Assembly (NCBI GenBank): GCA_002049455.2
Contig: KV918954.1
Span: 62,001 to 126,000, forward strand
Direction: 5' to 3'
Length of the DNA: 64,000 bases
DNA from: Porphyra umbilicalis
Taxonomy: Eukaryota > Rhodophyta > Bangiophyceae > Bangiales > Bangiaceae
Below are positions 27,073 through 61,212 of the stretch, piece after piece. The position numbers and the translations under genes are program-made. The notes under the pieces are model-generated. The model made no database searches, had not been told where the DNA came from, and worked only from the letters and a program-made list of their open reading frames with translations. Each line of letters begins with the position of its first letter. The first letter of the stretch is position 1.

Positions 27073-27175
27073 GCCTCAACCTGTGCGCGAGCACGATGAC
27101 ACGGGATGGCCACGTGCCGACAACCGCAGACCCGTACAAGACACGGTGGTCACCGGCCGCAGGGTACGCACCCTT

Positions 27176-28060: not shown

Positions 28061-28065
28061 TTGAC

Positions 28066-34429: not shown

Positions 34430-36505
34430 ATGGCGTCGGCCGATGCGGCCCACGGTACGGCCTCCATGGCGGTCGACAGTCGGGGCGGTGCTCCTGGTGA
34501 CGTGCTCGAAGAGGAGGAGGAGATTGACGGCACCCTGGCCTCCCTCCTGTCGGATTCTTGGCCGACTCCCGCCGTCGTGGACGACTCTTTTCGCCGGTTC
34601 CCCTGGGACCTCGGGGGGTCCCTGGTGGAACAGCGGTATGCGGTCCTTGAGGGCCGCCGCATGGTCCGTCTATGGACGACCATCCGGGCCAACTATGGCC
34701 CGTTGTACGCCGTCCCCAAGGGGACGGCAACGGACTTCCCCTTTCTCCGTCGCCAGGAGGACTGGCGGGTGTGTCAGGTGCTTCGCCATCTGGCGTAGCG
34801 AGACCTCCCCCTGGAGGTAGGCGACAAGCCCTACTTCTCGTGGGACTACTACCCTGGCACCCCCCCCAAGTTGGGGGAGGAGGACCGCGGGTACTTTGTA
34901 CCCGGCGCCCTGGGGGAGTGGACGGTTCGGACTACCCTGGGCGTCCTGGTGCTCCATGAGCAGCGGGAGGTCCGAGAAGTTCCGGTATCTCGGCGTAAAG
35001 CCCTGTATCCGATCGCCCCCCTTTGGTGGGCGTCGGTCGAGGTGCCGCGCGGTATGGCCGCGCGGATGCCGCAGATGGTGGCGCTGTGTGGCAGCAAGCT
35101 GATGGGAGAGGTCCTCGGGGGACCCTACCACATTATGTTGGCAACCCTTTGGGCCGCCGAGGTGGCCGACGTCTTCGTCGGCAGCATCCGCCACCATGGC
35201 CATCTGTGGCGTCTTCCACTGGTCCTGCGGACGGCTTTTGTTGAGCTCACGGCAGAGCGACTGTGCTCGGCCGACCCGTCCGCTCGGCCCCTCTTGGAGG
35301 CCGGGTTAGAGCTCCTCCGCATTTTGGAGGAGCATGGGAAGGAGTCGTGGCTCCTGTAGGATGGGAGCCCCCGAGGGGTCTTCCGGTGTGCCACGGTACT
35401 TGACAATGACGGGGTCTTGGTCCTCATGGAGGGCCTTGGTGACTCCATCCTCCCTTATGGGAGGGATGTTACTCATGAACTTCGTCTTCGTCCCCTTGAT
35501 CGGGACCTGGCCACAGCCGGGCCGAACCGTTACGGTCCGGCGGCCCTTTTGGCTCCCCCGGCGGCACAGCCGGCGTCGCCTCCCGCGAGCTTCGCGGGGG
35601 TGCCGTATCCGGCCTCGCCCCTTGGGGGGGCGGTCTCTCGTCCTTACACCCCCCGTGGGGGTGGACGCTTTGGTCGGTCGCGTCGTACCTACCCCGGAGG
35701 AGGGTCGGTTCCCCTTATTGGGGGACGTTCGGGTCCGACGTTGGCGTCCCTTCCCTTGTTCTCGTGGGACGGGGCCGCCCAACTGGGGACCCCTCGGCCT
35801 GTGCGGCGCGCGGTGTGGGATGGCTTGGCCCGCTCCCTAGGGGAGCTCCCCCCGATCCTTACCAACGGGGTGGATCACACCCTGATGATGGCCCTAAGCC
35901 GCACCTTGGTGCGGCTTCGCAACGAGATGGCCGTTATTGTGTCACGCCCTATGGGTGACCGAGAAGCAGACGTGCTGTACTCCTTGAGTACGGTCGACTC
36001 GATCCGCCGCCTCTTGGCGGAGGAGTATGGCGCGGCCGTGGCCGAGACCAAATCCGTCTTGGCGGGATGCTCCATTCGCAACATGGCGTCACCCCCGGTT
36101 CCGGCCGGGGGTGGTATTTCGTCTGCGACGCTACAGCGTCCGCCGTCCCCTTCCCCACCCCACTACGGGGTGGGGCCTGGCTCTTCTGTTCCGTCCCATT
36201 ATGGGGCGGCCTTGGGTTCGGTAGCCCCGCCCCCTTATGGGGCAGGCTTGGAATCGGCTACCCCGTCCCATTTTGGGGCGGGCTCTGGTGTTGCTATTCC
36301 GGTCCCTCAAGGGACGGCGACTGGTCCCTCGGCGACACCCCCGACCTTCTCGGGGCCGGGGTATTACTCGCGCGATGATGATCCCGGTCAGGGGTATAAC
36401 CCTGACTTTGGTTCTCGCTCCGGGGGTTGGCGACTTGTCACCGGGGGTGCTTGGCACCCCTGTCCCTCGGTCATTGGTTGTGTTACCCTTCACCGCCCTC
36501 TTTAA
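34430..36505 (+). pseudogene. E antisense gene (691 codons, two in-frame stops)
   Basis: A single plus-strand frame opposite in direction to gag-pol, from ATG 34430 to the stop at 36503-36505. It is interrupted only by TAG at 34796-34798 and TAG at 35357-35359, with no frameshift. The N-terminus is acidic (VLEEEEEIDG). The centre has WWASVEVPRGMAARMPQMVA near 35030-35090, shared with the C antisense protein. A helical region near 35820-36080 (ALSRTLVRLRNEMA) also has a C counterpart. The C-terminus has four 12-residue repeats of the (H/P)(Y/F)G...GS..P type (36161-36304). It ends 58 bp from the stop of pol, tail to tail, with AATAAA at 36553-36558. No match to a family I know; it is not an env-like protein, since no signal peptide or membrane segment is seen. 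Confidence 0.8.
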
Positions 36506-36552
36506 AGGGAGGTGCCGCACTGTGGGGGAGAGTGCAAGAGGGCCCCGTAGGG

Positions 36553-36558
36553 AATAAA
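36553..36558 (+). promoter_or_regulatory. AATAAA, possible polyadenylation signal of the E antisense gene
   Basis: It lies 48 bp after the antisense-gene stop, in the narrow gap between the two convergent genes. Use of this hexamer in this organism is unknown. Confidence 0.35.
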
Positions 36559-36563
36559 GGGGC

Positions 36564-39500
36564 TTAGCCCCTCTTCTTTGTGACCTTTGTCTCTACGGCC
36601 GCCCGAGCGACTCGCAGGTCTTGTACCCTTTTCTTGATTTGGTCAGAGAAGTATATCCCTTCCCGCGTCAAGGCGGGGAGATTAATTTTCTTCCGGAGAC
36701 AGTATTTCAGGAGGGCTTCTCTCGGAAGAGAAGAGGCAAATTGCCACGTGGCTTCCGCTTCGGGAAACCCAAACCATTTGACTAAGAGCTTCAATTGCCC
36801 GTCATCATTCCAACCATGTTTGATAAATTTTTCAAACACGTATTCGGGACCATCCTTAAGGTGGGTCCCCTCCTTAAAGAGGGCTTGTGCCTTCAGGGCA
36901 CGGGTTCACTTGGCATTTCGCGCCGGGGGCGTGGGAGCTCCAGTGACATGGTCACTGCTCACCGTTCTGATGCCCCTGGAGCTCTCTATCAGGAATCGGT
37001 ACCCATCGGTCTGTAGTACCATGTAAGGCCCCTGGGTCTTGAACCCAAGCTTCTTTGGCGAGCGGTTGTGGGCATCCAGATAGACCCAGTCCCCAGCTTT
37101 TAGCTGGTTATTCTTCTCTCGAGCGCGCGCATCGAAGGCGCGCTTGTACGCTGCCTGGGCTTTCCCCAGGTGCTCCCGGACGTTGGGAATGAGGGCCTTC
37201 AGGTCCTCAACATATTGTTCCGCCGCCGAGCTGGCGTCGACGGGTCGTTCCTCGGCTTGTCTCAGCCGAGGCATCCTCTCAATCCCAATGAGTTGGAGCT
37301 GCCTCGGGCTCACGAAAGCTATGGGGATTTCCCCAGTGCTAGAATGGACCTGCGTATTGTACGCAGTTGTCAAGAGGGACAGATGGCTGTCCCACTCGGC
37401 TTGGTGCTCCGCCACATAGCAGCGGAGCTGTCGGACGAGGGTGCGGTTATACCGTTCCACCTGCCCGTTCGTCTGCGGGTGATAAGGCGAGGTATAGTTC
37501 GAGGCTATACCGAGTAAACCAAGGATGCCCTGGTAATACACCGAGGCAAACTGCGGTCCGTTGTCCGTAAGGACAGTGTCCGGGATGCCGTATGCGGCAA
37601 CCCATGTATCTATAAAGGCTGATGCCACGGTCGGGGCCGTGGCTTCCCTCATGGGGATCGCTCTTGTCAACTTTGTGAACCGGTCACAGATGACCAGGAC
37701 GTGCTTGTGCCCCCATCTAGAGGTGGGCAGTGGGCCCAACAGGTCCATGTCAAGCCCCGAGAAGGGCTCGTCGGCGGTGAACAACTTCATCACCGTCGTA
37801 TGTTTTCTCTCTGAGAGACGGTTCTTGGCGCACGCGGGGCATTGCTCCACGTGCTTGTACACGTCAACGACCATCGTAGGTCAGTACACATACCTACGAA
37901 GGGTGTTTTACATTTTTCTCGAGCCGGCATGCCCGGCTAACACCGACTGGTGTTGGTGAGTTAGGAGGCGCTTCTTTAGCGCCTCGGGGATAACCACTTG
38001 GGTTTCCCGTCCGTACACCGAGCGACGGCAGAGTAGCGCGTTCTTTTCTCGGAAGAAGAACGCCTGACGACTCCACGTGGGGTCGGGGGGCGAAAGAGCA
38101 TCGAGCTCTTCAAGCCTGGCCTGGCAAAAGGCGTCCTCGGCCTGGCCCAGGATAATCTCTCGGGCCGTCAGGGCCCCCATAGGGGCCTCCTCCGGTGACG
38201 CTTCTTGTAAGACGTCACTGGCCCGGGTCTCGACAGCTAGGACGGGGATGTCCTCGTCCAGGGGCGAGGTGTCCAAACCCTCTGTAGGGAGACGCAATAG
38301 CGCGTCTGCCACCTTGTGATCCTTTCCCGGCTTATGCCGTATTTCATAATTGTACTCCGATAGTCGGAGTCGCCATCGGTTAATCCGAGCATTCGGACTC
38401 ATACTAGTGAGAACCGATAACAGGGCGCGATGATCGCACCGCACCACGAATTCCGCACCTTCTAGGTAGGACCGTAAATAGGTCACGGCCCAGACGACGC
38501 CTAGCGCCTCGATCTCCGTGGCGAAATAGTTCTTCTCCGCAGGGAGAAGAGCACGGCTATAGTACCTGATGGGGTGGTATTCCCCGTCGGACTGTTGTTG
38601 CTGTAGGCAACAACCCAGCTGTTCATAGCTGGCGTCGACATCGACGATATAATGCCCGTGCCTCTTGGGCAGGGCTAGGATACGGGCGTCTAATAGACTT
38701 CCTCGGAGTATCTCAAAGGCGTCCGTCTCCTTCCCTGAGGGTGGAGGAAGCTTCTTAGGAAGCTTGGTGCTTGTAAGCGCCGTTAGTGGCTTCGCTATCT
38801 TAGCGAAGTCTGCTACGAAGCGGCGGTATACGCCGCACATACCCAGAAAGCTCTTCATCTGGGTTTGGGTTTCCGGATAACGGAGACCCCGAAGCGCCCG
38901 GAGGTTTTTCTCCAGGACATGTACCCGTCCTGGTCGGATCACATGACCAAGGTATTCCACTTCCTCCTGGAAGAAGTGGCACTTAGACGCCTTCAAGGTG
39001 ACCCCTGCCTTCCCGAGCAGGGTCAGCACCTCATCAAGGTGCTGTAAGTCTTCTTCGGGGGAGCCCGAGAAAACAATCACATCATCCAGATACACCAAAC
39101 ATATCTGCCATTTCACGCCGGCCAGGATCATATCCATGGCGCGTTGGAAATTCGCAGGGGCGTTGCACAATCCAAAGGGAAGGCGCACGCACTGCCACGC
39201 GCCCGAGTGGCACGTGAAAGCCGTGAGATGTTTGTCCTCCTCGGCTATTGGTATTTGCCAGTAACCCGCGTTACAATCCAGGATGGAGAACACCCTGGCG
39301 TCCCCTAGGGAATCGATGCACTCATCCATCCGGAGGATGGGATACGCATCCTTGATAGTCATCAAGTTGAGCTTTCTGTAATCGATACAGAAGCGTACCG
39401 AACCATCAGGCTTCGGTACCATGACCACGGGGCTAGCCCATTCCCCACTTGCGGGCTCAATGACGTCCATCGAGCTCATACGCTCGACTTCCCCTTTCTC

Positions 39501-40709
39501 TCTCTCCCGGGCCATGGGCCCGGCCTTGTACAGGTATTGTCTCACGGGGACAGCCCCAGGCTTCAGTCGGATTCGGTGTTCCACCCCTCGAATTCAGCCG
39601 AGCTTTCCCTCCCAAAGGGAGGAATGCTTTTGGAGGAGGGCCTTTACGGGCCCCGACCACTCCGCCGGCACCGAAGAAACATCCACCTTCGGCAGAGGTG
39701 AACCCTCTACCCCCTTAGGGGGCGTAGCGCGCTCCTTGAGCTCGCTCTCCGAGACCTCGTACGTCGGCCCCTCGTGGGCGTCGATGTACCCGATGGTCAT
39801 ATCGGTTGTTAGCCGCAACGGCGTAACGCCCAGGTGCATCACCTGGATGGTTATGGGCTCGTCTGCCATCATTATGGCCGGGCCTTGGGCGACCTGTAGA
39901 CCATGCTTGTGGTACAAAGGCGGTCGCCCTCTCACGAGGCCATGCCCCGTGTATGTACTTCTTACGGGAACATGGGCTATCGTCCCGGGTTGAACCCAGG
40001 TCTTCCGGGCCGGCTTCAGTTGAGCCGTTAGCCCCTCGGGGCAAGCACAGACCGCCGAAATGGAGGGATTGGGGCGTCCCCTAGGGGCTCCCCTCCTTTT
40101 GATCGGCACCTTGGTGCCGTCTAGGAGTTCCACATGTTGCTCCTGTGTTGCAATGTTTTTTGTCGCAACGTCGATGAAGGAGAAGCCCAAAATAGCTGGG
40201 ACACTCATATTGTTCACGACTCCAAAGGAGATGTAGGAGGTCTGACCCCTAAGGGTCACACCAAGACAGACAGCTCCAACAATGGGGAGCCAGCCCCCAT
40301 TGACATCATGGAACATCTTCGCGAGATCACCCAGCGGTTGCAGCGGGGTGTCGACCGGCAATAGCCGCCGGTCTATGAGCGTCGGGCCACTACCCGTATC
40401 CAATATAGCCCGGGTAGTGAGATCAAATCCTGCCGTCAGGAATAACCGGACGGCTAGTTGGTAACTAGAGAAGGGCATGAACGCGCAAGGCGTTCCCTTT
40501 GGGGGTCTCCCTTGGGAGGCCCCCACTACTCGACTAGGCCGGCTTCTCCCGGCCCTACGAGATGACTTGCATCTCGGGTCGACTCCATTCGTCTCCCAGG
40601 CGGGTGGGATAACCCCACCCGCTACTCGTTTCCCGAGGAAGAGTTGTCCTCCTTGTTCTGCTCGGCCGCATCCCTCTCTGGGGAGGGTGAGTCGTCCGAG
40701 GACGACCAC
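36564..40709 (-). pseudogene. E pol: protease, RT, RNase H, integrase, chromodomain (four stops, no frameshift)
   Basis: One continuous minus-strand frame of about 1380 codons. Protease ILDTGS near 40400. RT has FCIDYRKLN, LDCNAGYW and YLDD near 39090. RNase H has VDASYEQLG and RCDHRALLS. Integrase has CPACAKNR, the Asp in MDLLGP, LTDNGPQF and HPQTNGQVERYN. The chromodomain (36600-36850) reads VKWFGFPEAEATWQF. In-frame stops: TGA 39594-39596 between protease and RT, TAA 37908-37910 and TGA 37881-37883 in the integrase zinc-finger region (at positions where relatives have Tyr and Trp), and TGA 36906-36908 before the chromodomain. It overlaps the end of gag in another frame (40622-40709), as expected for a frameshift-expressed pol. 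Confidence 0.93.
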
Positions 40710-42691
40710 GAAGGGCCATAATGTTCCCGCACCGCCGCGACCGGTTGTCCCTTACGGACTTCCTCGTCCGCCTTGCGGCGCTCTTCGCACCGCTCCAGAA
40801 AGGCTTTGGTCAACAGAGCCTTTGTCCCCGCATGAAGGCGGGGACACTCTCGAAAGAAATGTCCCCGCATGTTACATGCGAGACAGATATTTGTCCGGGG
40901 TCGCCCAGGACGTCCCGCTTCTCCCCCCTTGGGGTTAGTCCGTGGGGAAGGCCCTCGAGGCCCTTCCCCCACCTTAGCGGAAGCCCCTTGGGCCTGTCCT
41001 TGAGGGACGTCCTTCATCCTAGGGGGGCCCCATCGGGATGGACCTGCTTCCCCAACCTTCGGGGGGTCCCTTCGGGGGAGATACACCTCCCCCACCTTAG
41101 GTGGTCCCCATCGGGAATGACCCGGAGAAACTTCCCCCACCTGAGGTGGGGCTGTTACTGCCGCGGTTACGTATTTCCGCGGCGCTGGTCGAGCAGCGCG
41201 ACGCACCCGACGGGCCTCGGCCCGTCGGTCCTCTGCATCCTTCTGCTCCTGGAGGCGCCTACGACAGACGTCCCCCTTCCGCTGGGCATATTGCACCAGC
41301 AGGTCCATTGGCATGTTGGGGGTATTATGTTCGCGCACATCGGCGCGTATCTCCCAACCCAGCCCCTGCATATAGCGACTTTTCATCTGTCCTTCCGTGT
41401 GAATGTATCCACACAGGCGACGTAACCCCCGTAGGCCTACGTAGTATTCATTCTCTGTTTCCTCCGCCCCTTGGGCGGCCCCATGGAACATGGCATCTTG
41501 GTCGCTTAGCGACTGCTCATCCGCATATTTGCGGAGGAGCCAGTTGATCAGTTCCAAGTAGGAGCTGACCTCTCCACTCCGCCCTCCTTGGAGGGACGGC
41601 ATGATCGTATATAATTCCCGTTTGAGATCACCCTTAGTGAACTCGGGAAGGAGATACAGGGCTCGGCCCTCCGAGATGTCATTGTCGTCACCCGCTTTTA
41701 CGAAGCGGCTGAGGAATTTGAAGACGCCTAAGGCGAGCGTCCCATCCCACTCTGCATCACGGCCAAAAGTGGCCGATACATCCTTACGCAGACGGCCTAG
41801 GCCGTGCGCCATGGTCCGGTCGTACCGGATGTCGGTATTCGCCAAAGCATAAGTTGCGCAGTCTAAGCCTGCGGCATAGCGGTCGTCCGCGGGGACGATC
41901 TTAGGGGGAATCCGACGGTGGGATTCCCCTCTCAGCTCGTGCCCTAGGGCACGGGTGACCGATCGACGGGGCACATGGCGACCCCCGTCTCCCCCGGAGT
42001 ACTCCCCGTCCGAGGAGGAGGAACTCATGCGCCTACGTCGGCGCCGGGACCGTCTAGTGGTCCCGAGGGCTGTCTCGATAAGAGACAGTCGATCGTGTAA
42101 CGGGCTCATCAAAGCGTCCAACGAATCCCGTAGGGCTGCCGATATGGCAGCCGCGTCTTGGGCCCCCGTTGGGGCCCGGTCACCACCTCCACGAGGAGGT
42201 GTTCGGGGTGGGCCGGCGGCTCTCGCCAGCCCGTCACATGGGCCCCATGGTAAACGGGGGACCGCTTGGTCCCGCCTCCCCGGGGTTAGAGGAGGTGGAG
42301 GCGGGAAATCCCTTCCGGCTCCACCCTGCACACCTTGGAGGGGAGGAGGTGGGAATTCCCTTCCACCTACGCCCCCCGCACCTTGGGGGGGAAGAGACGG
42401 GAATACCCCTCCGTCTACATCCCCCGCTCCTTGGGGGGGGAGAGACGGGAATACCCTTCCGCCTGTGCCCCCCGCCCCATGGGGGGGGAGAGACGGGAAT
42501 ACCCTTCCGTCTCCACCCCCGTCGCCCGGCGCGCCACGCTCTGGCGTGGCGGTGCCGGCTTGACGCTCCCGCCGAGGATGGATCCCTCCGGGGTCCTGAG
42601 ACCCCGAGCCCTCGCTGGCTCCGTCCAGGTCGCCCAGTGACGGGTTGCCGGCGCCCGGGGCGCCGGTCTTCGCCACCCCAGTGGTGTCCAT
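40622..42691 (-). CDS. E gag (intact, 689 residues)
   Basis: Open from ATG 42691 to the stop at 40622. The N-terminal region has five tandem 16-residue repeats of the type G(R/G)VFPSLPPQGAG. The capsid-like core (about 41900-41250) has RYDRTMAHGLGRLRKDVS, TFGRDAEWDGT and SYLELINWLLRKYADE. Next are repeats containing PPKVGE, then a zinc knuckle CLACNMRGHFFREC (C-x2-C-x4-H-x4-C, about 40890) and an acidic Ser-rich tail. It is homologous to the D Gag. I chose ATG 42691 over an upstream GTG because it is the first ATG. This is the only intact large gene I find in the nest. Confidence 0.9.
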   Translation of the reverse strand: MDTTGVAKTGAPGAGNPSLGDLDGASEGSGSQDPGGIHPRRERQAGTATPERGAPGDGGGDGRVFPSLPPHGAGGTGGRVFPSLPPQGAGDVDGGVFPSLPPQGAGGVGGREFPPPPLQGVQGGAGRDFPPPPPLTPGRRDQAVPRLPWGPCDGLARAAGPPRTPPRGGGDRAPTGAQDAAAISAALRDSLDALMSPLHDRLSLIETALGTTRRSRRRRRRMSSSSSDGEYSGGDGGRHVPRRSVTRALGHELRGESHRRIPPKIVPADDRYAAGLDCATYALANTDIRYDRTMAHGLGRLRKDVSATFGRDAEWDGTLALGVFKFLSRFVKAGDDNDISEGRALYLLPEFTKGDLKRELYTIMPSLQGGRSGEVSSYLELINWLLRKYADEQSLSDQDAMFHGAAQGAEETENEYYVGLRGLRRLCGYIHTEGQMKSRYMQGLGWEIRADVREHNTPNMPMDLLVQYAQRKGDVCRRRLQEQKDAEDRRAEARRVRRAARPAPRKYVTAAVTAPPQVGEVSPGHSRWGPPKVGEVYLPRRDPPKVGEAGPSRWGPPRMKDVPQGQAQGASAKVGEGPRGPSPRTNPKGGEAGRPGRPRTNICLACNMRGHFFRECPRLHAGTKALLTKAFLERCEERRKADEEVRKGQPVAAVREHYGPSWSSSDDSPSPERDAAEQNKEDNSSSGNE
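42300..42520 (-). repeat. 48-bp tandem repeats in E gag
   Basis: About five units of 48 bp, each with GGGAATACCC(T/C)TCCG and a CCCCC...GGGGG palindrome. They encode the 16-residue Gly/Pro/Phe repeats of Gag. Confidence 0.85.
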
Positions 42692-42844
42692 GGCGGGAAG
42701 ACTTCGTCCTGCTGCGGAAACAATCACTCCTCAAAGACGATCTCAACGGAACAGTCACAGCCAAGGGCAAGACAAAGCACAGCAGAGAGACCACCGTGAG
42801 AACTGCCACAGGGTAGACCCGACTGATCAAGAAGGGCCAGACCC

Positions 42845-42866
42845 TGTCCCCCGCTGATCCACCAAA
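42845..42866 (-). promoter_or_regulatory. E primer-binding site
   Basis: On the minus strand the LTR end ACATTTGG continues as TTTGGTGGATCAGCGGGGG, close to the B primer site. B and E probably use the same or related tRNAs. Confidence 0.65.
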
Positions 42867-43634
42867 TGTAGTGGTTTCTGCCCGCAAAGCCGACGGGGCA
42901 CGGCCCCGTCAGAAAACCCAGCACAGGATGCGGAGCGACACAAAGGAGAAAGAACACAAACGCCTGGATCACAGGGCGCAGAGCGCACCAGAACGCCGGA
43001 ACTAACGCAAACGCAACGCTGATTTATTCGAGTACGCACGATGACCCCAAAGCATACACTCATATACCCTCAGAAACAAGACGCAGGGCGTGCACAATCC
43101 CGACCCAGGAAAAGACGGTCGTAGGGGGGCCGGGGCCCGATGGGCCACGGTCCCTGATGAGGGGTCCTGGTGGCCCCTGCCACCGATCAAGGGACCCCCT
43201 TCCACTGGAAGAGAGATATGGTCCCTGGATTTAAGCCAGCTTGGACTGAAATTGCCCAATACATCACTAGGGACTTATCCCCAGATTTTCAACTCTCCGA
43301 TCGAAGTCCTCGTGGGATATCGACAGTGGCCGATATCTAATCTCGGCCCCGGGCTTCTCCCCAGCCAAAGGAGCTTCCACAAGCTTCCAGGCCCCTCTAG
43401 GGGGCCAGGATCGAGGGGTCGCGTGGCCCCTCGTCCGCGTCAGGCCCTGTCCCCCTCTGCCTCTGGGCAAGGGGGATGTCAGACTCGGGGGTGGACCTGA
43501 GCGCCACCTGGCCTGCGCCCCGAAGGGGCGCCGCACACCGCTCCCTCTAGGGGCATTGCGTGTGTGCTCGCGGCCCATCCCCCGGCTCATACCAGGGGGA
43601 TGGCGTCATCAGGGGAGAGGGGGTTTCCCCCACA
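42867..43634 (-). repeat. E 5' LTR (768 bp)
   Basis: Pairs with 33288-34055. It is followed in + orientation by the second CACCT. Confidence 0.95.
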
Positions 43635-43639
43635 CACCT

Positions 43640-46511
43640 GGTTCTCCGACGAAGTCGAGTACCTCGGACATATTGTCCGCCCCGGTCACCTGCACGTTCA
43701 TAACAGGAACGTTGACGCTCTGAAGCACGCCGAGTTCGCAACGACAAAGACCCGGCTGAAAATCTTCTTGGGCATGTGCAACGTCTATCGAAGGTTTGTC
43801 AAGGTCTTTGCCAAACGAGCGAAGCCCCTGAACGCCCTGACTAGGGCCGAAATCCCACCGGATCTACCTTCGCCAACGGACGTGGCCATCGCCGCGATGG
43901 AAGACATTCGAAACGCACTGTTGTGCATACCGGTACTTGCCTTTCCAATGGCCAATCGGAAGCTCGTTGTTGACGTAGACGCATGCGCCGACCAAGTTGG
44001 TCGTACCCTTCTCCAGGAGGAACCGGGCGAACTGCTTCATCTTCTCGGATATTGGAGCCGAGGACTCACTGCTGCAGAGCAAAACTACTCCACCACGGAG
44101 CGAGAATGCCTCGGCGTTGTGTGGGCTGTCCTCAAGTTGAGGCACTTCCTCGATGGGCAACGGATCCTCATCGGAACGGATAACCAAACACTTAGCTGGA
44201 TCGGCAGCACGACCGACTCAAGCGGACGCTTGACGCGACGGCGATTTCGCATCGCCGAATTTACATTCGATATGGTTTATAAACCAGGTGCATCGCACCA
44301 CTTGCCAGACTTCCTGTCGCGCGCCTCTACGGTGGCGCCGCCAGAAGATATCCATGATGGTCTACCTTGTCTGGCATTGGCCGAGACGGCCAACGGCTTA
44401 AGAACGGGGAGGTACACAAGTACCGCCACAACGGAACCGGTAGAGTTCGACGATGTTGTCGAAGCACCGCAAACAGACGACTTCTGCGTCGAGATGTCCA
44501 CTCGCGTGGAGCAAGAAACGGCCAAGGCCTCCTTCCGCAACGACCATCACGCTCGGTATCGCCGGACACCTTACGGCAACCAATTGGTTACACCAAAATC
44601 ATGACGCGAACGCGTCTTGACGCTCGAGCATCGCGCCACAGTGGCAGCCCACCCCGGTATGAACCGAATGTATTACACAATGCCAAAGGCATATTAATGG
44701 CCTTCGATGGTAACGGACATCCACACAACCATCACCAAGTGCACAACTTGTGCCCGAAACCGCCTCCCCTTGCGGCGAAACATCACGCCCATGACGCTGT
44801 TCCAGGCTACTGAGCCTCTCAGGGAGCTGTCCGTTGACATCTTTGGGCCCACCCCGGCGTACCAGACGGGCAATCGCTCCATCTTGGTTATCAACGATCG
44901 CTTCACCAAGCTCACCAAGTGCGTCGTCCTCCGGCGAATTACGGACATATCCGTGGCGTCAGTCATCATCGACGCGTGGAAGTCCACCTTTGGGCCCCGA
45001 ACCGGAACCAATCGGACCTAGGGCCTCAGTTCATATCGAACTTCTTCATCGCTTTGATGAAAATGCTTGGCATTGAAACGGTTCGCACCACGGCGTATTA
45101 CCTCCAAACCAATTGGCAAGTTGAACGGTACAACCGTTCCATGGCTACTCAGCTGCGACACCTCGTCGCCGATGACCCATGACGATGGCACGAGCTACTC
45201 CCGGTACTCATCATGGCATATATTAGCCAACCGCACCGATCTGAGGGTATCGCTCCATTTGAGCTCGTTATCCCAAGGCGGATCCCCAACCTCACGGTTC
45301 GCAACTTGCCCCCGGGCACTCGGCTGACCAATAAGGGAACGCTGAAATATGGGTCACCCCCAGCTCGAAAACACAAGTTCATGGCCCGCCTACGCAAGCA
45401 GATCCCCATCGCAGTCGATGCCTTGCGTAAGACGCAACAACGTTACGAACGTAACTTCGACCATCGCGTCGCAACCCGCAATGCGGACGTCAATATCGGC
45501 GACTACGTATACACAAACAACCACGACCGGCAAAACAAGCTGCAAAGCAAAGCCATTGGACCCTTCGTGGTCATCAACGCAGACGCGGATGCCTCCACGT
45601 TTGTCATTGACATTGACAGGGAGGAAGAACGTGTCAGCAGTGATCATGTCACCCCAGCTCCTGGTCCAACGACGACGGACACGGAGCCGCACCTTCTGCT
45701 AGATGGTCTAGACCAACGCAAGCCACCCCCGGCAACGGCCGACGAGTATGTGATTGACAAACTCCTAGGCTTACACCAGACTGGCGACAGCTATAGCACG
45801 AAGGTGCACTGGTTCGACTACGGGTCGCATGACGACACCTGGGAACCCCTGGAGGATCTCCCTAGCAACCTGTTGGTGCGATGTTCTCGGCAGAAGAAGA
45901 AACATGTATCCGGGAACGAATGGCAAACGCCAACGCGACGAAGGCGCCGACAGGCCGGGCTCACAACCGTTGCCAACATCGTCATGGACTCCACGTGGAT
46001 ACCCACTATCCAACATGTCCATGTTACCGGGGACGGAGTCATCCATGCCGATGTCTCATGGACAGATTCAAGTACAGCCGCCGCAATTCAGGAAGTAATT
46101 CCTGTCGCGTGGCTGAAGTCCACTCTGCCGTCCATGACGCGCAACTTTGCGTATGATCCCCAACTTGCCTTGCGGCAATTCCCTCGGCTGAACCGTGTTT
46201 ACGGCCCGTACACATATATGTTGCCGAAATCCGCGCAGGCGACACTGATCGGGAGCGATCCCTGTGTACCAGTGCTCCCCAACGAGTTTCTGATACCCCC
46301 GGTACAACACTTGGACTCATTCCTTAGACGCTTGGTGACAACCACAGAGGAAGCAACCGTGGTCATACCACAATGGAACACCAGTTGGTACGCTACCGCC
46401 ATACGCGCATGTTTCGAGTACGAAGTGCTTTCATCAGCAGATGCAAGGGATGCAAATCCCACACCATGGGCCATGCTGGCCTGCCTCTTTCTTCATCGCT
46501 ATGACGACTGA
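43640..46511 (+). pseudogene. B2 pol, RNase H to C-terminal extension (part 2)
   Basis: Continues RT/RNase H directly after E (GGTTCTCCGACGAAGTCGAG, matching B1). RNase H keeps VDACAD and the TAAEQNYSTTERE block. Stops lie at 44602-44604 and 44695-44697. A frameshift lies near 44990, with a TAG at 45019-45021. The integrase HPQTNGQVE block reads YLQTNWQVE, and TGA at 45180-45182 follows; both changes are shared with B3. The chromodomain (KVHWFDYGSHDDTWEPLEDL) and the full C-terminal extension are open to 46511. Confidence 0.9.
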
Positions 46512-46533
46512 CAGGAATCTGCGAAGTAGATAC

Positions 46534-47560
46534 GCCGAGTGCGCGCGCGAGCGCTGTTGCGGACGCAAATGTGGTACGGACTCTGGTCAGCAATGACCGA
46601 GATCCCATCGACCTCCTCGGTCGGGCCAACGTGCGCGCAGAAGGAGCCGCGTGGCTGAGGCTGACATACATCTCCGGGTCGGTGGACCGATCGACATCGG
46701 GTCCGTTACCCGCAACGGCGTGAGCCACGTGCGCCCCGCCGTTGGCGTTGCCGCCGTCCACCGCCAGCACTGCGGGGTCAACCATGCTGGTCCCTGGGTA
46801 TACACCCTTACCGCGTCTGTGCGTAGCCGCAATGCGAATTGCTCGCGTCGCCAGCCGTTGCCGCCTTTGGCCGCGCCACAAGGCGAACCACCCGCGCCGC
46901 AAGGCGAATCGCCCGCGCCACAGGCTGTCGTCAACCGCGCAGCAAGGCAAAAACCGCCTGCGCCGCAAGGCGAATCACCCACGCCGCCAGGCAATCCGCC
47001 CGCGCCGCCGGCCGTTGCCGCCCTTGCCCGTGTTTTCGGCCCTCGACGCCCGCGCCGCAAGACGAATCGCCCGCGCCGCCAGGCGAACAGCCCGCGCTGC
47101 CGGCCCTCGTCGCCCGCGCCGAAGGCGAACTACCCGTGCCCCCAGCCTTACCACCCGTGCTGCCGCCGCGCTTAGCCACCGGGCGCGCCGCCCGCACCGC
47201 CGGCCTTGCCGCCCTTGCCACCCTTGTGCATTGCCGCCGGGTGAGCCGTTCGCGGTGCCGACACTGCCGCCCTTGCGCCTTGCCGCCCTTCCGCCTTGCC
47301 GCCCTTGCGCCTTGCCGCCCTTGCGCCTCGCCGCCCTTGCGCCTTGCCGCCCTTGCGCCTTGCCGCCCTTGCGCCTTGCCGCCTGTGCGGCTCTTGTGAT
47401 TTGCCGCCCTTGCCGCCCTTGCGTCTTGCCGCCCTTGCGCCGCCGCCGCCGCCGTGCACGTCGCCTCCGGCCGCCCCGCTCCCCCCCCGCCCCCCCCCCC
47501 CCACACTCACCAGGTCCGTAGCCTCGCGGTTGGCCACCTCGCGATAAAGCGCCCCAACTC
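46534..47560 (-). pseudogene. B2 truncated antisense gene and GCC minisatellite
   Basis: Same organisation as B1. The match to the B3 antisense gene begins exactly at 46534, directly after GTAGATAC, the same breakpoint as B1 (25831/25832). The plus-strand array GCCGCCCTTGCGCCTT (about 46850-47470) gives minus-strand frames of Gly/Lys/Gln/Ala/Arg repeats, such as GGKAQGRQGARAARRK. A homologous leader and a 25-C run (47674-47698) follow up to the 3' LTR. Confidence 0.75.
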
Positions 47561-48155
47561 AAGCATTGCCGTTAGGCCTCAACCTGTGCGCGAGCACGTT
47601 GCGACGGAATGCCCCCGTGCCGACAACCACAGACCCGCACAAGACACAGTGGTCACCGACCGCAGGGTACGCACCCCCCCCCCCCCCCCCCCCCCCCCGG
47701 TAACACGAATTCGTGTCCCGGCTTTCGCCTTGTCGCCTGGGTAGTCAAACCCCGAGGAAGCTGGCGCCACACGGCACTGACGATGGTCACCCCAGCACGT
47801 GCTGCTCGACGCGCCGCCGCGAACACGGGTCATACCCCTGGCCCCCACACCCGCCCCCACACCCACGCACCCACACGCGTGGAACCGCCGACGCGGGCAT
47901 GCCTACGCGTAAGCGGCGATTTGACCCGCAGATCAAGCTGCGCGCTACGCACGCATGCGCGTGCGCGATCGAACGGTCGCGGCCGACACCGGCGAGCCGC
48001 CACCACTCCCCGATCAGGACGGATCGGCACCCATTCGCGACTCCCGCCACCTGGGCGGTTACGCCCGTGCGGGCCCGTAAGAGTCCGCGATCGCCCAATC
48101 AGGTTCCACCATTCTCGGATCTCACCGGGACAGTTCTAATCTCGCGTTGGAAGTA

Positions 48156-49001: not shown

Positions 49002-49006
49002 ATGAT

Positions 49007-49261: not shown

Positions 49262-49722
49262 AGAATCTTTTTCAGCTACGAATACGGTATATACAAATGG
49301 TTGAATTCGAGTACGAATACTGGCCACGTATATCTTCACGTGTATCAATACGAAATATACCTTGAAAACACGAGTACGAATCAGTTCCGAAATTGATTGA
49401 CTTGGAACAGCTGCCGATCTTTAGCAGCGCCAAGCGCCCATTTTTCCCGAGCATGTCGGATCCGTTCCGTCACGTGAGTCATCCTGTTTGCCGCGTTGTC
49501 AACGGCTTGCGTGAGAATTCTAACGGGCGCCCTTTGGCGAGCACACCACGGTTCGGAAAATCCACCCCAACTAGAACCTTTTTGTTTTCAAATAAAGTTC
49601 AAATATGAACTGGTACTTAGTGGAGGTGAAATGACATTATTGCATTCGATTGGCGCGCTCTTCTGGGTTATACTCCGCTGTCGGTCGGAAGTGATATATA
49701 CCGACGGCTACCTACTCAATTT
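49262..49722. other. AT-richer interval inside family C pol
   Basis: It separates the integrase C-terminus from the chromodomain and changes the frame, so it probably holds an insertion. GTACGAATAC-like motifs recur (about 49276, 49310, 49374). Neither inverted ends nor a target duplication could be fixed. A short frame at 49393-49608 has no recognisable domain. Confidence 0.4.
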
Positions 49723-50124
49723 TTGATATGGGTGTGGGTGCCAGCCGCCTTGCTGCCTACGGGTACGGCAGTTCAGACATTTACACCAGTAAAAACACCT
49801 ACTCACAATATACGTATGGTAGGGCCTGGCAATCAGGCACCGGAGCCACCCGAGGGCGACCCAGTTAGGGAGCGGGCTCTCGCGGCGTGGCAAGTGCACG
49901 CCCTGCCTTCATCGTCCACAAACACGATGGAGGCGGTGTTCGACAAGTTTGTCGGACAAGGGTATGGCGAAAAGGGGCATTTCATGCTGCGCGTGCGCTG
50001 GTTTGGGTATGGTCCCCGAGAGGACACTTGGGAATATGTCGAGGACCTTTCGAGTGAGAAGGTCCGCCGATACTGCAGTCGGCACAATATCGCGCTGCGG
50101 CAAACACCCGAGCCGGGGGAGTAA
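49723..50124 (+). pseudogene. Family C pol, chromodomain end (part 4)
   Basis: The open frame ends at 50124 with a chromodomain: VFDKFVGQGYG, LRVRWFGYGPREDTWEYVED, then a short tail. The aromatic and Trp positions match those of B and E. It is displaced in frame from part 3. It ends 137 bp before the stop of the antisense gene on the other strand. Confidence 0.85.
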
Positions 50125-50261
50125 CCCTGGACAACGCGTGGTCACCACCCACAAGGAACAATTCCGACTGTGGAATGCAAACGGCCCCTTTATGTGTGTA
50201 CCAACGCTAAACAAAGCGAGCTACGCTCTCCACCGCACTGGGTCCCCGGCAGGGCCCTCAC

Positions 50262-52462
50262 TTACGGCTCCATACCACCGGGGTGGCCCTGTCCGTCCCT
50301 GCGCGGCGACGCATCCCGGTGGGCCCCACTCGGACCACCCCAACTCCGGCGGCGGAAAGTTGTCGGAGCGGGCGGGACACCAGGGACAGTAGACCGCTGC
50401 GCCTCCCACGCCTGCATCAGTCGCGCATGCGTAGGCGTGGTTCCCGTCACGGAGGACCCCCGACCGTGGGCATAGCGCAGTTGCGAGTACCCCGGCGCCG
50501 GCGGGGAGGAACGATCCCCGCGCTGCTCAGCGGACCCATATTGTCCATAGGACGCCCAAGTCCGGACGCCCCACTGCGGCGTGGCCGCGTGACCAGCCGG
50601 AGGTGCAGTATCCCCATATACTCCGCCGTGCGGCCAAGCGAATTGGGCTCGGTGCTCCTCGAGGCGGGTAACCAAGTGGGCTCCGACCGAGGGGAGAGCG
50701 GTCTCCTCCAGCAGACGGAGCCCCGCGGAAGACTCATCAGCCGACCCGACTTGGGCGGCAAAGGAGGCGAGACGGCGGCTCAACTACCCGACCGTGTCAG
50801 CCAAAGCGACAAGGGTGACTTCCCAGGCCGCGTCCCAGATGACGGGCGCCACGGCGGGAAGCACCTCCTGGAGCCCCCGAGCAACACATTGCGGCAGGGG
50901 CTCCCGGCTCTGTCCCCCGCGCACATGGCGCAGGGGGGAAGGCTCCACCATGACGAACGAAGGAGGGTCGCGACGCCAACTTGGCGCCGCACCAAAACAC
51001 GGGGACTCACGGGCCGAGTAGGCACTAGAAGAACCTCCACCGGTCGCCCCCGGGTTCGGGGCGTGCAGGTGGTGATGGCCACCGCGGGTACGGCCCGGCG
51101 CACCTCGGCCGCCTCGGCGGGTACTCGAAATTCTGGCGCCCTGAGCGCCCCGACCACCATCGAAGACGGGGGTTGTCTTGTCCACCGCGTCCCACCCACT
51201 TGGGGGGGGCGACGTCGCTGGCCCACACCCGTCGGCGTAGGGGTAGTCGCCCCGTCCAAGGCCCTCGCCGAGGCGAAGTTCGCCGTCCTCGAGCCCCTTA
51301 TTACAATGGGCGAAGCCCCGAGTATCGGGCTCCTTCCCCGGTGCCATCCGCTTACGACGGTGATGAATGACCGCCGCCCCCCAATCAATTTGATTGTGGA
51401 GGGTGAGCATGCACTCCAGGACAGTGGCTGCGTCCCCTTCACGCCTCGCCGCGAGTTCTGCGGGGCCCAACGACCGAATGGCCGCCACCAGGCTGGCCGA
51501 CTGGTGCCAGAGTCGGCCCCTGTCGCGTACGACGGCGTACCACGTCGACGCCACTCCGATCAACCAGTTGGTAGCGAGGATGGCAAACGCACGGTGCAAC
51601 TGATCACCGGGTTGGAGGGCCGTGGCGAAGTACGCCACGTACCGCGGCATACACGCCGGGAAGCCAAAAGGCACCTCTACATCCAAGTACCACGGAGGCA
51701 GCGCCGCATAGCAGCGCGGGCGAATGTGCTGGTGAACTTCACCTGCACGGCCCACAAGAGGTAGGCGTGCTCGTCGCGCGCCAGACACTCTTGACTCGGC
51801 GCCGCGCGGTTGACGTGCGGGTCCGCCTCCGCCACGTAGGGCGGGGATAACGACGCCCACGCCCAAGAGGCGGCCGCACTCTTGCCGTCGATATTTTTGT
51901 TCTCCGGGGCGGCCGCCAACAAGCGGTGGGCGGTCATGACGCCCTTCTCATCCCTCGCTTCAAGTAGAGCCGGGAGGCAGTCCTTGAACCCCAGGAGAAA
52001 CTCCAACTGAGCGGGGAACTGGGCGCACCAGTTCTTCCAGGCATCAAAACGACGTACGTCCGGAATCGCGAAGTAGACGTCCCGCAGGTGACCCACCTTC
52101 ATCCCGGTTCGGTGCGGGGGTGGTGTCCACCAGCCCTGCGGCGCGGGAGGAGTAGTCCCAGCGCTGGCTGCCTCGACTTGGGCCGCCACGAGCGCCGCCC
52201 GCACGGTACGGGCGCCCGCTTCGAGACATGCCGGAGGAAGTAATCCCGACGCCGCCGGGCCTTGTCCGCGACTCGGGCAGACGGCCGAGTGAGCCGCCGA
52301 CCCGGCCCGGGATGACCAACTTGGTTGCCCCGACGCCGGCGAGGAGTGCGCCGCGGGGGGGGAGTCGGGCGACATGTCCATCGCCGGTTCCACCTTCTCC
52401 TCCTCCAAGAGGGGCCCCCCCGGTGAGGAGCTCCGCACCTTCGTAGACGCCGAGGACGCCAT
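50262..52462 (-). pseudogene. Family C antisense gene (~733 codons, one frameshift, one stop)
   Basis: The minus-strand ATG at 52462 begins MASSASTKVRSSSPGG and soon reads LEEEKVEPAMD, recalling the acidic N-terminus of the E antisense protein. The first frame is open to 51677 (includes FDAWKNWCAQFPAQLEFLLG). A frameshift near 51700 passes to a frame with WYLDVEVPFGFPACMPRYVA, which aligns directly with the E motif WWASVEVPRGMAARMPQMVA. It continues with ILATNWLIGVAS and ends at a TAG (50784-50786), after which the same frame reads LSRRLASFAAQVG to the stop at 50262. Length, position and orientation match the E gene. Confidence 0.78.
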
Positions 52463-53930: not shown

Positions 53931-53979
53931 TGGTAGTATGCCACCTACCGCGGTGACCTGTCGCGATCCGTCTCAACTA

Positions 53980-54427
53980 TTGCTTACCTCCAAAAATTGG
54001 CGGTTGCAGAGAGAAGGGGGCAGAGCCGACGACACAACATGGAAATGAGGTCGCATTGGCTGTTCGACAAGCCAAGATCAAACAATTGTCTGGGAGTTAC
54101 CGCCAGTAATCTTGCAAGCCAATCAACGTGTCTTGCAGGAGTTACGCAGAGCCATTTCAACCCACAATGGGATTATATGAGTCTTTTTGGCTGCTTGCTT
54201 GGGCCTGAAGAGGTCATGGACAGGGTTCTGGACCAGACCTGTGATTTGTCATGAGATCAACAAATTTCTTCAGATTTCTTGACATCCTGATGTACGTTTC
54301 CAGTGCGCAGAGCTGCATGAGGAGACTGTGTAAGAAACTCAAATGATTCCTAGGCTTTCCGTTGGTCCACGTGCGCTGTAGAATGATTGCAACCACTCTG
54401 CAACCGCCATTTTTTGGAGTTCAGCAA
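53980..54427 (+). mobile_element. MITE M3, 448 bp
   Basis: Third copy of the 448-bp MITE (TTGCTTACCTCC ... GTTCAGCAA). TA at 53978-53979 and 54428-54429; the right TA is shared with element G3. Confidence 0.92.
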
Positions 54428-54429
54428 TA

Positions 54430-58172: not shown

Positions 58173-58245
58173 AGGCGTAAGCCCAAGATATTGGCACCCC
58201 CTGCAGCCATGGTCAACCAAGCAAGGCACTTAACAGTGAACCCTG

Positions 58246-60294
58246 CTACTCTTCCTCCTCATCGCTACGACGCGAGTCGCGACGGCAAGGGTGGCGAGAG
58301 CCAACGCTGGCCCCCGACTCCTGGGAAACGCTATGCGCACGCGTGTTGCGCGCCGACGGCGGGGCCCCGCCTGACGGCCCCCCGTCCGCATGAGCGCGAC
58401 GCCCCAGATCGCTCTGGGCATTGAAGCGCGTCGGCGCTACCGCTTCCTCCGGCTGAACAGCCTCGAGGTGCTGAGAAAAGCGCTCGTAGTTGGCATCGCC
58501 ATCGACGGCGCCAGCCAAGGCCTGCACAATATTGTCAAAGGCCGGCTCAACCCCTCGCCCGTCCGCCCGCTCCACAGCACGGCGCAAGCCAGTAACTTGA
58601 ACAACCAAGGCATGCGCCACCGCTGACGCAGCAGCCCAACGGGGCGCGCGAAGGCGCACGTCGCGCACGCGCGCCGACCCAAACAGGGCAACCGCCGCGG
58701 AGGACGAGGCACGCGTCGGCCAAGTGGCCTCGATGGCCCGTGGCGGCGATATCGACCGCGAGCGATCGCGACGCGGCGAACGCGGACGGTGGTAACCACC
58801 ACGATCGCCACTGATGGCTTAAGCCCCCACCGAATGGGTCTGCTGACCGCGACGCCACACCCCAAGGTGACTCGGAGGAACCGTTGCCACATGAGCAGGC
58901 GCGTTCGGTTCAGGTGCTCAATCGAAATTCACACACGCGTGTCGAAGGCAAAAGCCTACCTCCTTGGTCGCATCGACCGTCACGCGCACCTGTCGCGCCT
59001 CGCCGGTGTCTTGGTCCCGACGGACCACGTCCTTAAGGACGACCTTCCAAGGGAACACGTCCATTGCGCGGCGCATCTTGCTATACAAGGCATGTGGCGC
59101 CTAGCCGTCAGGCGCCTCACGCAGTTTGGACTTGTCCAGGACGTCAAAGTGACGCAGTGTCTTTTCGTCCAGACGGACAAAATCCTTGTCCTCTTGAAAG
59201 GTGCGAACCCAAGCAGCAGTCAGACTGCAGTAGTACTCCGAGTACACAATCTTTCAAGCAGAACTATACTCGCTTCGCAACGAGTCCGCCAGTTACGACA
59301 CCACAACCGGGGTCGCCACCCAAAGATTGGTCTTGGGCTCCCAGTCGGGAACTGGCGGAAGCCATCAAGACAAGTCAAACGACTTCGGCGCCCGGAGGAA
59401 TCCGGCTGACCACTCCGTCGGCAATAACCCGCAGCCGCGAAAGAACCGTGTGTCCGCCGCGCGGCGATGACCGCTCGCGAACAGCGGCAGCGGGAAGTGG
59501 TTCGGTAGCTCGCTCATGCAAGGGCTTCGATCTTCACAGACCGCATCGTTCTCCTCCGCCGCCACCAGCGTAAGCTGATTCAGGTACTCCGCCAAACCGG
59601 CACCGTGGCCGATCGGGACCGCGAGGTCCGTGGCCACCGAGCGCCCGAAGAAGACGGCCTTCGGCCAGTTCCGCCACAAGCGGCGAAACAAGTTGGCTGC
59701 CGCCTCGAAGGTCTCGGTCCCCTTCACGGGAAACAACAAAGCTTTGATGTACACCAATCGGTGGAATGGGTGCAAGGGCACTTGGTACCAAATATCTTCG
59801 TTGCAAAACGACATGACCTCGTATATACGGCGCTGTGGCCTCTGGTTCCCAAAGAACGGGTCCCCGTGGGCCTCGATCACGCGGTCCCCAGCATAGCTGG
59901 GCGCACCGTGTTCGGCCAACACGTCGACGAAGCCCGGCAGGGCCTCGTACCGCGCGTGAAGAAGCCGAGTGTGCGCGCGAGCGCGGTTGCGAATGCAAAT
60001 GTCATACAGACCTTGGTCAGCGACGACCGGGACCCCGTCAACCACCTCGGTTGGGCCAATGTGCGCATATAATATGCCGCTAGGCTTGAACTGTTGCAGA
60101 ATCTCCGGGTCGGTGGACCGTTCGACATCGGGTCCGTCACCCTCCACAACGTGAGCCACAAGCGCCTCGCCGGTGGCGTTGCCGCCGTCAACCGCCATCG
60201 CTGCTTGGTCCGCCATGCTGGTACCTGGGTGCGAACCCTTCCCTCCCCCGTACGTAGCCGCAAGGCAAACCGCCCGCGCCGCAAGGCAAACCAC
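58246..60294 (-). pseudogene. B3 antisense gene (longest family B copy, broken)
   Basis: The minus-strand frame from 60294 to 59365 (310 codons) is open. It includes VGPTEVVDGVPVVADQGLYD, RRIYEVMSFCNEDIWYQVP and VYIKALLFPV, the latter two resembling the WYLDVEVP...YVAYFATAL region of the C antisense protein. Clear coding sequence continues in other frames: AAWVRTFQEDKDFVRLDEKT near 59190-59130, ALYSKMRRAMDVFPWKVVLK near 59080-59020, and a final helical part (ALVVQVTGLRRAVERADG) in a frame that ends with DEEEE at 58246. At least two frameshifts and a few stops are present. A Gly/Lys/Arg-rich low-complexity start may extend to about 60619. It ends 73 bp from the pol stop, tail to tail. Confidence 0.75.
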
Positions 60295-60560
60295 CCGCGT
60301 CGCCGGCCTTGCCGCCCTTGTCTTCGTCGCCCTCGCCGCCGGCCTTGCCGCCCTTGCGCGCCGCCGCCGGGCTCGCCGGCCTTGCCGCCCTTGCCGCCGT
60401 CGCGCTTAGCTGACGGGCTGGCCACCGGCGCCAACGGGCTCTTCGCCCTTGCCTTCGGCCTTGCCGCCCTTGCCCCCCTTGCGCGCCGCCACCGGGCTTG
60501 CCGCCCTTGCCGACTTGCCGCACTTGAGCCCCGCCGCCGGGCGCGCCGCCCCCCCCCAGC
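60240..60560. repeat. GCC-rich minisatellite of B3
   Basis: Units such as GCCGGCCTTGCCGCCCTTG. Homologous to the longer arrays in B1 (26041-26990) and B2 (46850-47470). In each it lies at the 5' end of the antisense gene. Confidence 0.8.
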
Positions 60561-61212
60561 CCCTCGCCCACACTCACCGGGTCCTTAACCTCGCGGATGG
60601 CCACCTCGCGGTTGAGCACCCCTACTCAAGAAATGCCGTTGGGCCTCAACCTGTGCGAGAGCACGAAGACACGGGATGGCCCCGTGCCGACAAATGCGGA
60701 CCTGCACACGACACGGTGGTGACCGGTCTCAGGGTACGTACCCCCCCCTCGGTAACACGGACCCGCGTCCCGGCTTTCGCCTTGTCGCCGGGGGAGTCGA
60801 ACCCCGACGAAGTAGGCGCCACCCGGCAACGACGACGGTAACCCCAGCACGTGCTGTACGGCACGTCCGCACACCGGCGGGTCTTAACCCCGACACTCGT
60901 CACCCGGCACCCGGCCGCCTGGCCCACACTCCGACGCAGACCCGCCTGCGCGGGCGTGCTTACGCGTAAGCTTCGATCTGACCCGCAGCGCAAGCTGCTC
61001 GCCACACACGCACGCGCGTGCGTGGCAAGACGGTCGTGACCGGCGCCGGCGAACCGCCACGTCCCCCCGATTGGGACTGGGCGGCGCCCCTGCACGACTC
61101 CCGCCGCCTGGGCGGTTGCGCCCGCGCGGGCCCGTACGAGTCCGCGATCGCCCAATCGGGCTTCACCATCCTCGGATCTCACTGGGACGCTTGGAATCTT
61201 GCGTTGGAGGTA

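What the first reader, a model, noticed from the sequence alone, without database searches (positions are those of the whole stretch)
34430..60619. A conserved antisense gene in three Ty3/gypsy families
In E (34430-36505, +, element on -), C (52462-50262, -, element on +) and B3 (about 60600-58246, -, element on +) a gene of about 690-730 codons lies between pol and the 3' LTR on the opposite strand. In all three it ends tail-to-tail with pol at 58, 137 and 73 bp. Size, place and direction are the same although gag-pol of the three families has diverged strongly. Antisense ORFs 3' of pol are known from some plant gypsy elements (for example Grande and RIRE2). A homologous set across chromodomain families in this kind of GC-rich genome may be undescribed.
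Basis: partly seen in the sequence, partly recalled or inferred. Interest (0 to 1): 0.92.

Follow-up and report, generated by a model that had tools for sequence, protein, structure and literature searches.

The report
Conserved antisense gene in algal retrotransposons
Several families of jumping genes (Ty3/gypsy retrotransposons) in an alga carry an extra protein gene on their opposite strand, near one end, that selection has preserved; its function is unknown, and one amplified branch of these elements has lost most of it, which offers a ready natural comparison.

Summary
The finding holds and is larger than reported. The antisense gene is real, although the window's own copies are damaged: E has two internal TAGs, C is frameshifted, B3 has six in-frame stops. 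Elsewhere in this 84-Mb algal genome many copies are open. Antisense hits close to a scored integrase hit were all on the opposite strand and 3' of it: 28 of 28 (E/C-type, within 2.3 kb) and 59 of 59 (B-type, within 4 kb); many hits could not be paired. E and C are homologous (profile E 5e-23), and two further lineages, F and G, join them. B3 is only suggestive. Selection acts on the antisense frame: pooled dN/dS 0.38 in E (0.20 for a diverged pair, against 0.07-0.10 in pol of the same elements), 0.53 in a C-like group, 0.23 for one B pair. In E the other five frames hold medians of 8-17 stops. No convincing Pfam domain, PDB sequence relative or plant TRP28 domain was found. A B subfamily sharing a deletion of most of the gene has amplified (junction in 40 of 40 scored places), so the gene is not needed in cis there. 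Best reading: an ancient accessory gene, laid out like plant 'aORF-3R' genes, whose product, probably nucleic-acid-binding, acts in trans.

The parts
33288..34055 (-). E element, 3' LTR (element on - strand)
   Evidence: 768-bp direct repeat, 98.96% identical to 42867-43634
42867..43634 (-). E element, 5' LTR
34430..36505 (+). E antisense gene (broken: TAG at 34796 and 35357; homology ends at 36430)
   Evidence: 30 genomic copies at 86-100%, the window's own included; pooled dN/dS 0.38
36564..42730 (-). E gag-pol remnants (gag-like with zinc knuckle 40622-42730, RT/RNase H 37908-39593, integrase 36906-37880, chromodomain-like end to 36564)
   Evidence: Pfam; chromodomain-like end read by eye
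50262..52462 (-). C antisense gene (frameshifted between about 51748 and 51679; stop at 50786)
   Evidence: HMM of the C-like group E 2.5e-45 and HMM of E 1.8e-13 on 50787-51947
49630..50124 (+). C pol, C-terminal end with chromodomain
   Evidence: Pfam Chromo E 9e-5, 22.7 bits, just under the 25.1 cut-off
58246..60216 (-). B3 antisense gene (six internal stops)
   Evidence: B HMM pieces at 59368-60405, 59104-59253, 58921-59100, 58822-58917, 58249-58818; dN/dS 0.23 against L069
56365..58172 (+). B3 pol, integrase end and downstream part of pol
   Evidence: the Chromo match (E 1.2e-4, 22.4 bits, under the 25.1 cut-off) is in the sister copy 45183-46508
19084..28062 (+). B1 element, deletion derivative without most of the antisense gene (LTRs 19084-19478 and 27667-28062, 97.7%)
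   Evidence: junction at 25831/25832
46396..46974 (-). B2 remnant of the antisense gene (N-terminal part only), same deletion, junction at 46533/46534

Best explanation
It is an ancient accessory gene of chromodomain-bearing Ty3/gypsy elements in an alga: a protein gene in one uninterrupted frame, 3' of pol, read from the opposite strand and converging on the end of pol with a spacer of about 80-140 bp. Shown: position and orientation in every close pairing examined, homology of E, C, F and G, and purifying selection on the protein in E, C-like and B. Inferred: because the gene is antisense it must be made from its own mRNA, started in or near the 3' LTR, while every sense genomic RNA carries its complement; the protein (no clear membrane segment, Arg-rich linker in E, C-like and B) is most likely a nuclear, nucleic-acid-binding regulator of the element, such as an anti-silencing or RNA-handling factor. 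It acts in trans, since deletion derivatives that lack most of it have multiplied beside full copies.
For: Opposite strand and 3' of integrase in 28/28 close pairs and 59/59. E-C homology, profile E 5e-23 over 281 columns; F and G recognised by both HMMs. Pooled dN/dS: E 0.38 (30 copies), 0.31 (16 intact ones), C-like 0.53 (17 copies), one B pair 0.23. In E, variable sites shared by three or more copies fall 58/29/124 on codon positions 1/2/3, rare ones 235/232/241, so selection acts on source copies rather than on dead insertions. The phase signal starts at the ATG, which is kept in 30 of 30 copies. Spacers of 130 (L011), 137 (L051) and 79 bp (L069). Sister pairs by identity agree between antisense core and integrase for E-C and F-G. 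Hydropathy shows no membrane-like stretch in four of five representatives and a borderline one in E; Arg-rich linkers in E, C-like and B. A shared deletion amplified with long pol frames kept.
Against: No expression data, so the antisense mRNA, its promoter and the protein are unproven. No domain or solved relative supports nucleic-acid binding; the model is poor (mean pLDDT 37). F and G lack an obvious Arg-rich linker. The amplified deletion subfamily also fits a gene that is dispensable or even restrictive. B is not proven homologous (hhalign probability 12%).
Confidence: 0.5

Rival explanations
1. Self-restriction factor: the protein (or its antisense mRNA) lowers transposition of its own family, as Ty1 antisense RNAs do, and is kept because it spares the host; deletion derivatives are escapees that amplified.
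For: A deletion subfamily lacking most of the gene has spread (junction in 40 of 40 scored places; 33 of 140 B-type integrase hits). Antisense RNA inhibition of Ty1 is cited in a paper of which I saw passages (PMC4007536).
Against: An antisense-RNA-only function would not leave a protein-level signal with dN/dS of 0.2-0.5. A restrictor should be lost often, yet the gene is kept in at least four diverged lineages.
Confidence: 0.2
2. Structural or envelope/movement-like accessory protein of the particle rather than a nuclear regulator.
For: Position 3' of pol is where env-like genes lie (review); long protein with repeats at the C-terminus in E (by eye).
Against: Antisense orientation prevents expression by splicing of the sense RNA; no clear transmembrane stretch; no Pfam family, env or movement included, matched better than E 0.05.
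Confidence: 0.12
3. The open antisense frame is a by-product of GC-rich composition or of a sense-strand gene.
For: The three regions are 63-68% GC and overlapping long frames occur on both strands. In the C-like group one sense frame has a median of only 2 stops, and L069 (B) has 3 in the same frame.
Against: That sense frame has dN/dS 1.06 (C-like) and 1.25 (B pair). In E all other frames hold medians of 8-17 stops, and 16 stops are seen in the antisense frame of 29 copies against 56 expected if the same substitutions fell at random. The one other frame with dN/dS clearly below 1 shares its third codon position with the antisense frame and has a median of 15-17 stops.
Confidence: 0.02
4. Host gene captured by the elements.
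For: Gene capture by LTR elements is known (review).
Against: A recent capture is unlikely: different lineages are only 21-46% identical in the core, the frame is uninterrupted, and close pairings always show the same place. An old capture is not excluded.
Confidence: 0.1

Closest known systems
Plant aORF-3R genes (Grande gene23, RIRE2, Retand ORF4 with Transposase_28/TRP28); also Boty of the fungus Botrytis
   Same: Between pol and 3' LTR, antisense to gag-pol, present in most copies, conserved coding; tandem repeats in the same region in Retand (PMC7264820, parts 1-2 of 3 read; PMC11963269, abstract and passages)
   Different: No TRP28 match in the 47, 18 and 31 proteins scanned or in the whole genome; Retand is described as non-chromovirus while these elements bear a chromodomain-like end; host is an alga, whereas the paper says TRP28 appears only in flowering plants
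REM1 of Chlamydomonas, ORF3p (recalled, no paper read)
   Same: As I recall, a gypsy element of an alga with an inverse ORF downstream of the polyprotein
   Different: ORF3p is recalled as carrying PHD finger and chromodomain; neither was found in the antisense proteins here, and the chromodomain is at the end of pol
Antisense genes of deltaretroviruses (HBZ, APH-2)
   Same: Antisense genes whose products are nuclear (stated in PMC11963269, passage)
   Different: No sequence relation tested; different host and element class

Membership tests
Antisense additional ORF class (aORF-3R) | Lies between pol and 3' LTR | tested here: met
   E in the window (LTR pair); elsewhere only '3' of the integrase' was tested: 28/28 and 59/59 close pairs
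Antisense additional ORF class (aORF-3R) | Opposite strand to gag-pol | tested here: met
   28/28 within 2.3 kb and 59/59 within 4 kb; of 11 pairings at 3-9 kb, 7 were same-strand, taken as chance neighbours
Antisense additional ORF class (aORF-3R) | Present in most copies with protein-level conservation | tested here: inconclusive
   Conservation met (dN/dS); share of copies not settled: of 140 B-type integrase hits 59 have the core, 33 the deletion, 48 neither (capped searches)
Antisense additional ORF class (aORF-3R) | Own promoter and antisense transcript | not testable with these tools
   no RNA data
Antisense additional ORF class (aORF-3R) | Nuclear product (known for Grande) | not testable with these tools
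   Arg-rich linkers only
TRP28 / Transposase_28 (PF04195) proteins of Retand | PF04195 match | tested here: not met
REM1 ORF3p-like (recalled) | PHD finger and chromodomain in the antisense protein | tested here: not met
   no such Pfam match
Env-like third ORF | Sense orientation and transmembrane segment | tested here: not met
   antisense; no clear hydrophobic segment
One homologous antisense superfamily E/C/F/G | Significant profile similarity | tested here: met
One homologous antisense superfamily including B | Significant profile similarity of B to the others | tested here: inconclusive
   negative, nothing above noise; E 0.0025 but probability 12%, score 35.1 against a shuffle maximum of 20.3 and 22.5 reversed

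The most novel reading that the evidence does not exclude
All the antisense proteins, B included, descend from one accessory gene that has travelled with this gypsy radiation and encodes a new fold: an element-encoded, antisense-transcribed counter-silencing or copy-number regulator, with a deletion subfamily that lives as a cheater on, or an escapee from, the full elements. It would be an algal counterpart, independent of TRP28, of the plant and retroviral antisense accessory genes.
Probability: 0.3. Interest if true: 0.78.

Novelty: new variant of a known kind. Interest (0 to 1): 0.6.

Why it matters
Antisense accessory genes of LTR retrotransposons have been described since the 1990s without an established function, mostly from flowering plants, with a fungal case (review). 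A further family of them in an alga, unrelated in sequence to TRP28 as far as tested and kept under selection across diverged lineages, suggests that this layout has evolved or survived more than once and does something for the element. Full and gene-deleted B elements with long pol frames coexist in one genome, so what the gene does can be approached directly by comparing copy age, insertion sites, methylation and small RNA.

Tried and rejected
Sense-strand origin or composition artefact: rejected by per-frame dN/dS and stops, noting that one sense frame of the C-like group and of L069 has few stops. TRP28, PHD, chromodomain or other Pfam homology of the antisense proteins: nothing better than E 0.05. 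Solved structures by sequence: one chance-level match (E 0.27) for E, none for B. Viral contigs: 75 pattern matches, none confirmed. Structure of the E protein: mean pLDDT 37, pTM 0.27, only about residues 481-540 (helical, 72-84) reasonably confident, so no fold claim. I first took the '1325-aa' rve family (L074) for a gypsy family without the gene; its sequence reads as Ty1/copia by eye, so it is no such control, and I have no gypsy family shown to lack the gene apart from the B deletion. Host identity: chlorophyll-binding proteins show an alga; a red-lineage LHC type is my reading of the sequences from memory; an 18S search did not complete.

Counts: I used 143 of the 150 rows (seven second fragments dropped) plus 14 rows of the 107 that I picked as new; of these 157, 39 had an rve hit within 9 kb: 28 within 2.3 kb, all opposite and 3' (six of them from the 14 rows); the farther 11 were 3 opposite-3', 1 opposite-5', 4 same-3', 3 same-5'; 118 had none. 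rve hits were 150 scored of 1246 candidates. In one search I used 117 of 118 rows; 59 lay within 4 kb of one of 140 B-type integrase hits (of 1271 candidates), 2 at about 7 kb, 56 unpaired. Copies of one family are not independent, so I attach no probability to these counts. The E-values are for the small sequence sets searched there.
Full report
1. What is there. The window is contig C194:62001-126000 of an 83.8-Mb genome in 665 contigs that encodes chlorophyll-binding proteins (10 matches), so an alga; the sequences look red-lineage to me, from memory. All three window copies are damaged: E by two internal TAGs and loss of its terminal stop, C by a frameshift near 51.7 kb and a further stop, B3 by six stops. 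B3 starts at ATG 60216 rather than near 60600.

2. It is a family. The middle piece of the E protein finds 150 scored places (213 candidates). The best 30, fetched as L009-L038 and including the window's own copy, are 86-100% identical; 14 of them have an open frame of 746 aa or more with no stop inside the match, and 18 of 30 have no stop over the 618 codons compared. Most of the rest are 26-40% identical and include the window's C gene, E 2e-6. The C piece finds 107, including E-type copies. The B3 piece finds 118, many with frames of 700-880 aa. Relatives in metagenomes: 65 (E), 36 (B) and 20 (C-like), 8000 candidates scored each time; none is named (one carries only an empty label) and none has a Pfam domain. 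Seven are at least 98% identical to copies held here.

3. Where it can be paired, it sits in the same place. Within 2.3 kb of an rve hit, 28 of 28 E/C-type antisense hits are on the opposite strand and 3' of the integrase. Within 4 kb of a B-type integrase hit, 59 of 59 B-type hits are. Farther pairings are mixed, and most E/C-type hits had no scored rve neighbour; the counts are under Tried and rejected.

4. Homology. E against C-like: hhalign probability 99.5%, E 5e-23, 281 columns, 30% identity. The E HMM finds 19 of 20 C-like proteins and the C HMM 61 of 65 E proteins at E below 1e-3, and both recognise F (L072) and G (L073): E HMM 6e-12 and 1.3e-8, C HMM 5e-21 and 3e-16. Antisense core identities: E-C 29-32%, F-G 43%, E-F and E-G 24%. 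Integrase C-terminal identities over 158 columns: E-C-like 50%, F-G 55%, E-F 42%, E-G 41%, B to the other families 32-41%. The sister pairs agree, though this is five groups and no tree. B: E 0.86 and 0.22 against the single profiles, and only noise-level HMM scores for the other families. Against a broader profile of 25 sequences that I chose: score 35.1, E 0.0025, probability only 12%, over 133 collinear columns; 60 column shuffles reached at most 20.3 and the reversed profile 22.5. I read B as probably but not provably related.

5. Selection. My Nei-Gojobori script, 30 E copies, 618 codons: antisense frame pooled dN/dS 0.38 with a median of 0 stops (maximum 3). The other five frames have median 8-17 stops and dN/dS 0.92-1.6, except the frame that shares third positions, 0.50 with 17 stops. 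Sixteen intact copies: 0.31. Variable sites shared by three or more of the 30 copies fall 58/29/124 on codon positions 1/2/3; rarer ones 235/232/241; among the 16 intact copies the rarer ones fall 106/91/160. So ancestral changes were filtered and recent ones, largely in dead copies, were not. Stops: 16 seen against 56 expected when the same substitutions are scattered. Two diverged elements give antisense 0.20 (dS 0.35), integrase 0.07 and RT 0.10 (dS 0.42): constrained, but two to three times looser than pol. The phase signal is weak in the 201 nt before the ATG (11/10/15) and clear in the first 600 after it (12/6/33); the ATG is kept in 30 of 30. C-like group, 17 copies (L055 gave no match and was left out; 7 have no stop): 0.53, shared sites 25/22/75. 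There one sense frame has a median of only 2 stops, but dN/dS 1.06. B, one pair (window B3 against L069): dN 0.214, dS 0.926, ratio 0.23; a sense frame of L069 has 3 stops and ratio 1.25.

6. A natural knock-out. Two other B elements in the window, B1 (LTRs 97.7% identical) and B2, keep only profile positions about 48-149 of the antisense gene, with the same breakpoint, 58120/59964 in B3 coordinates. A 201-bp probe of B1 across that junction matched over 199-201 bases at 94-100% in 40 of 40 scored places, B1 itself included (417 candidates; B2 is not among the 40). Of 140 B-type integrase hits, 59 are followed by the antisense core, 33 by the junction, none by both, 48 by neither within the capped searches; open pol frames of 1300 aa or more occur in 20 of 59, 10 of 33 and 11 of 48. 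The deleted form therefore spread with pol kept. Either the product is supplied in trans, or it is dispensable there, or losing it was an advantage.

7. What the protein looks like. 516-781 aa in the five representatives compared: an acidic or low-complexity start in several, a conserved central region (WW..VEVP.G and G.LW.LP motifs in the E/C alignments, read by eye), then a linker rich in P, G, S, A that is Arg-rich in E, C-like and B but not in F and G. Hydropathy maxima 0.98-1.65, so no clear membrane segment. The AlphaFold model of the E protein is poor (pLDDT 37, pTM 0.27) except for helices at about 481-540; the other families were not modelled. Nothing convincing in Pfam or PDB sequences, and no PF04195.

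8. How it most likely works. [quoted passage not shown] Sense and antisense expression then oppose each other, which suits a factor needed before or apart from genomic RNA production. Arg-rich linkers and no membrane segment point to a nucleic-acid-binding, probably nuclear protein; deletion derivatives point to action in trans. All of this paragraph is inference. Anti-silencing or RNA-handling regulator is my first choice, self-restriction second.

9. Known relatives. The layout is that of plant aORF-3R genes, whose function is unknown; Grande's product is nuclear and Retand's carries TRP28, said to occur only in flowering plants (PMC7264820, parts 1-2 of 3; PMC11963269, abstract and passages). 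In an Ectocarpus transposon survey (PMC12477816, passages only) I saw chromodomain gypsy lineages but no mention of an antisense gene in them in those passages. REM1 of Chlamydomonas is recalled, not read. The listings of my paper searches showed no description of this family.

Noticed in passing
window 29184-48546: E (33288-43634) is nested inside a second B element, B2: B-type sequence stops at 33285 and resumes at 43635.
   Followed up: partly
[quoted passage not shown] a parallel to tandem repeats in plant Retand.
   Followed up: no
window 48545-48997 and 53978-54429, also 2750-3202: A 453-bp repeat, about 89-90% identical, in inverted orientation on both sides of the C fragment, with a third copy near the window start; nature not determined.
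   Followed up: no
G000:C127:112158-118922: Three integrase hits spaced exactly 3231 bp, suggesting a tandem array of an element piece.
   Followed up: no
L074 (G000:C9:395500-399500): Ty1/copia-like pol (by eye) followed by an inverted integrase with a chromodomain-like tail; no antisense gene of the present kind recognised there.
   Followed up: partly
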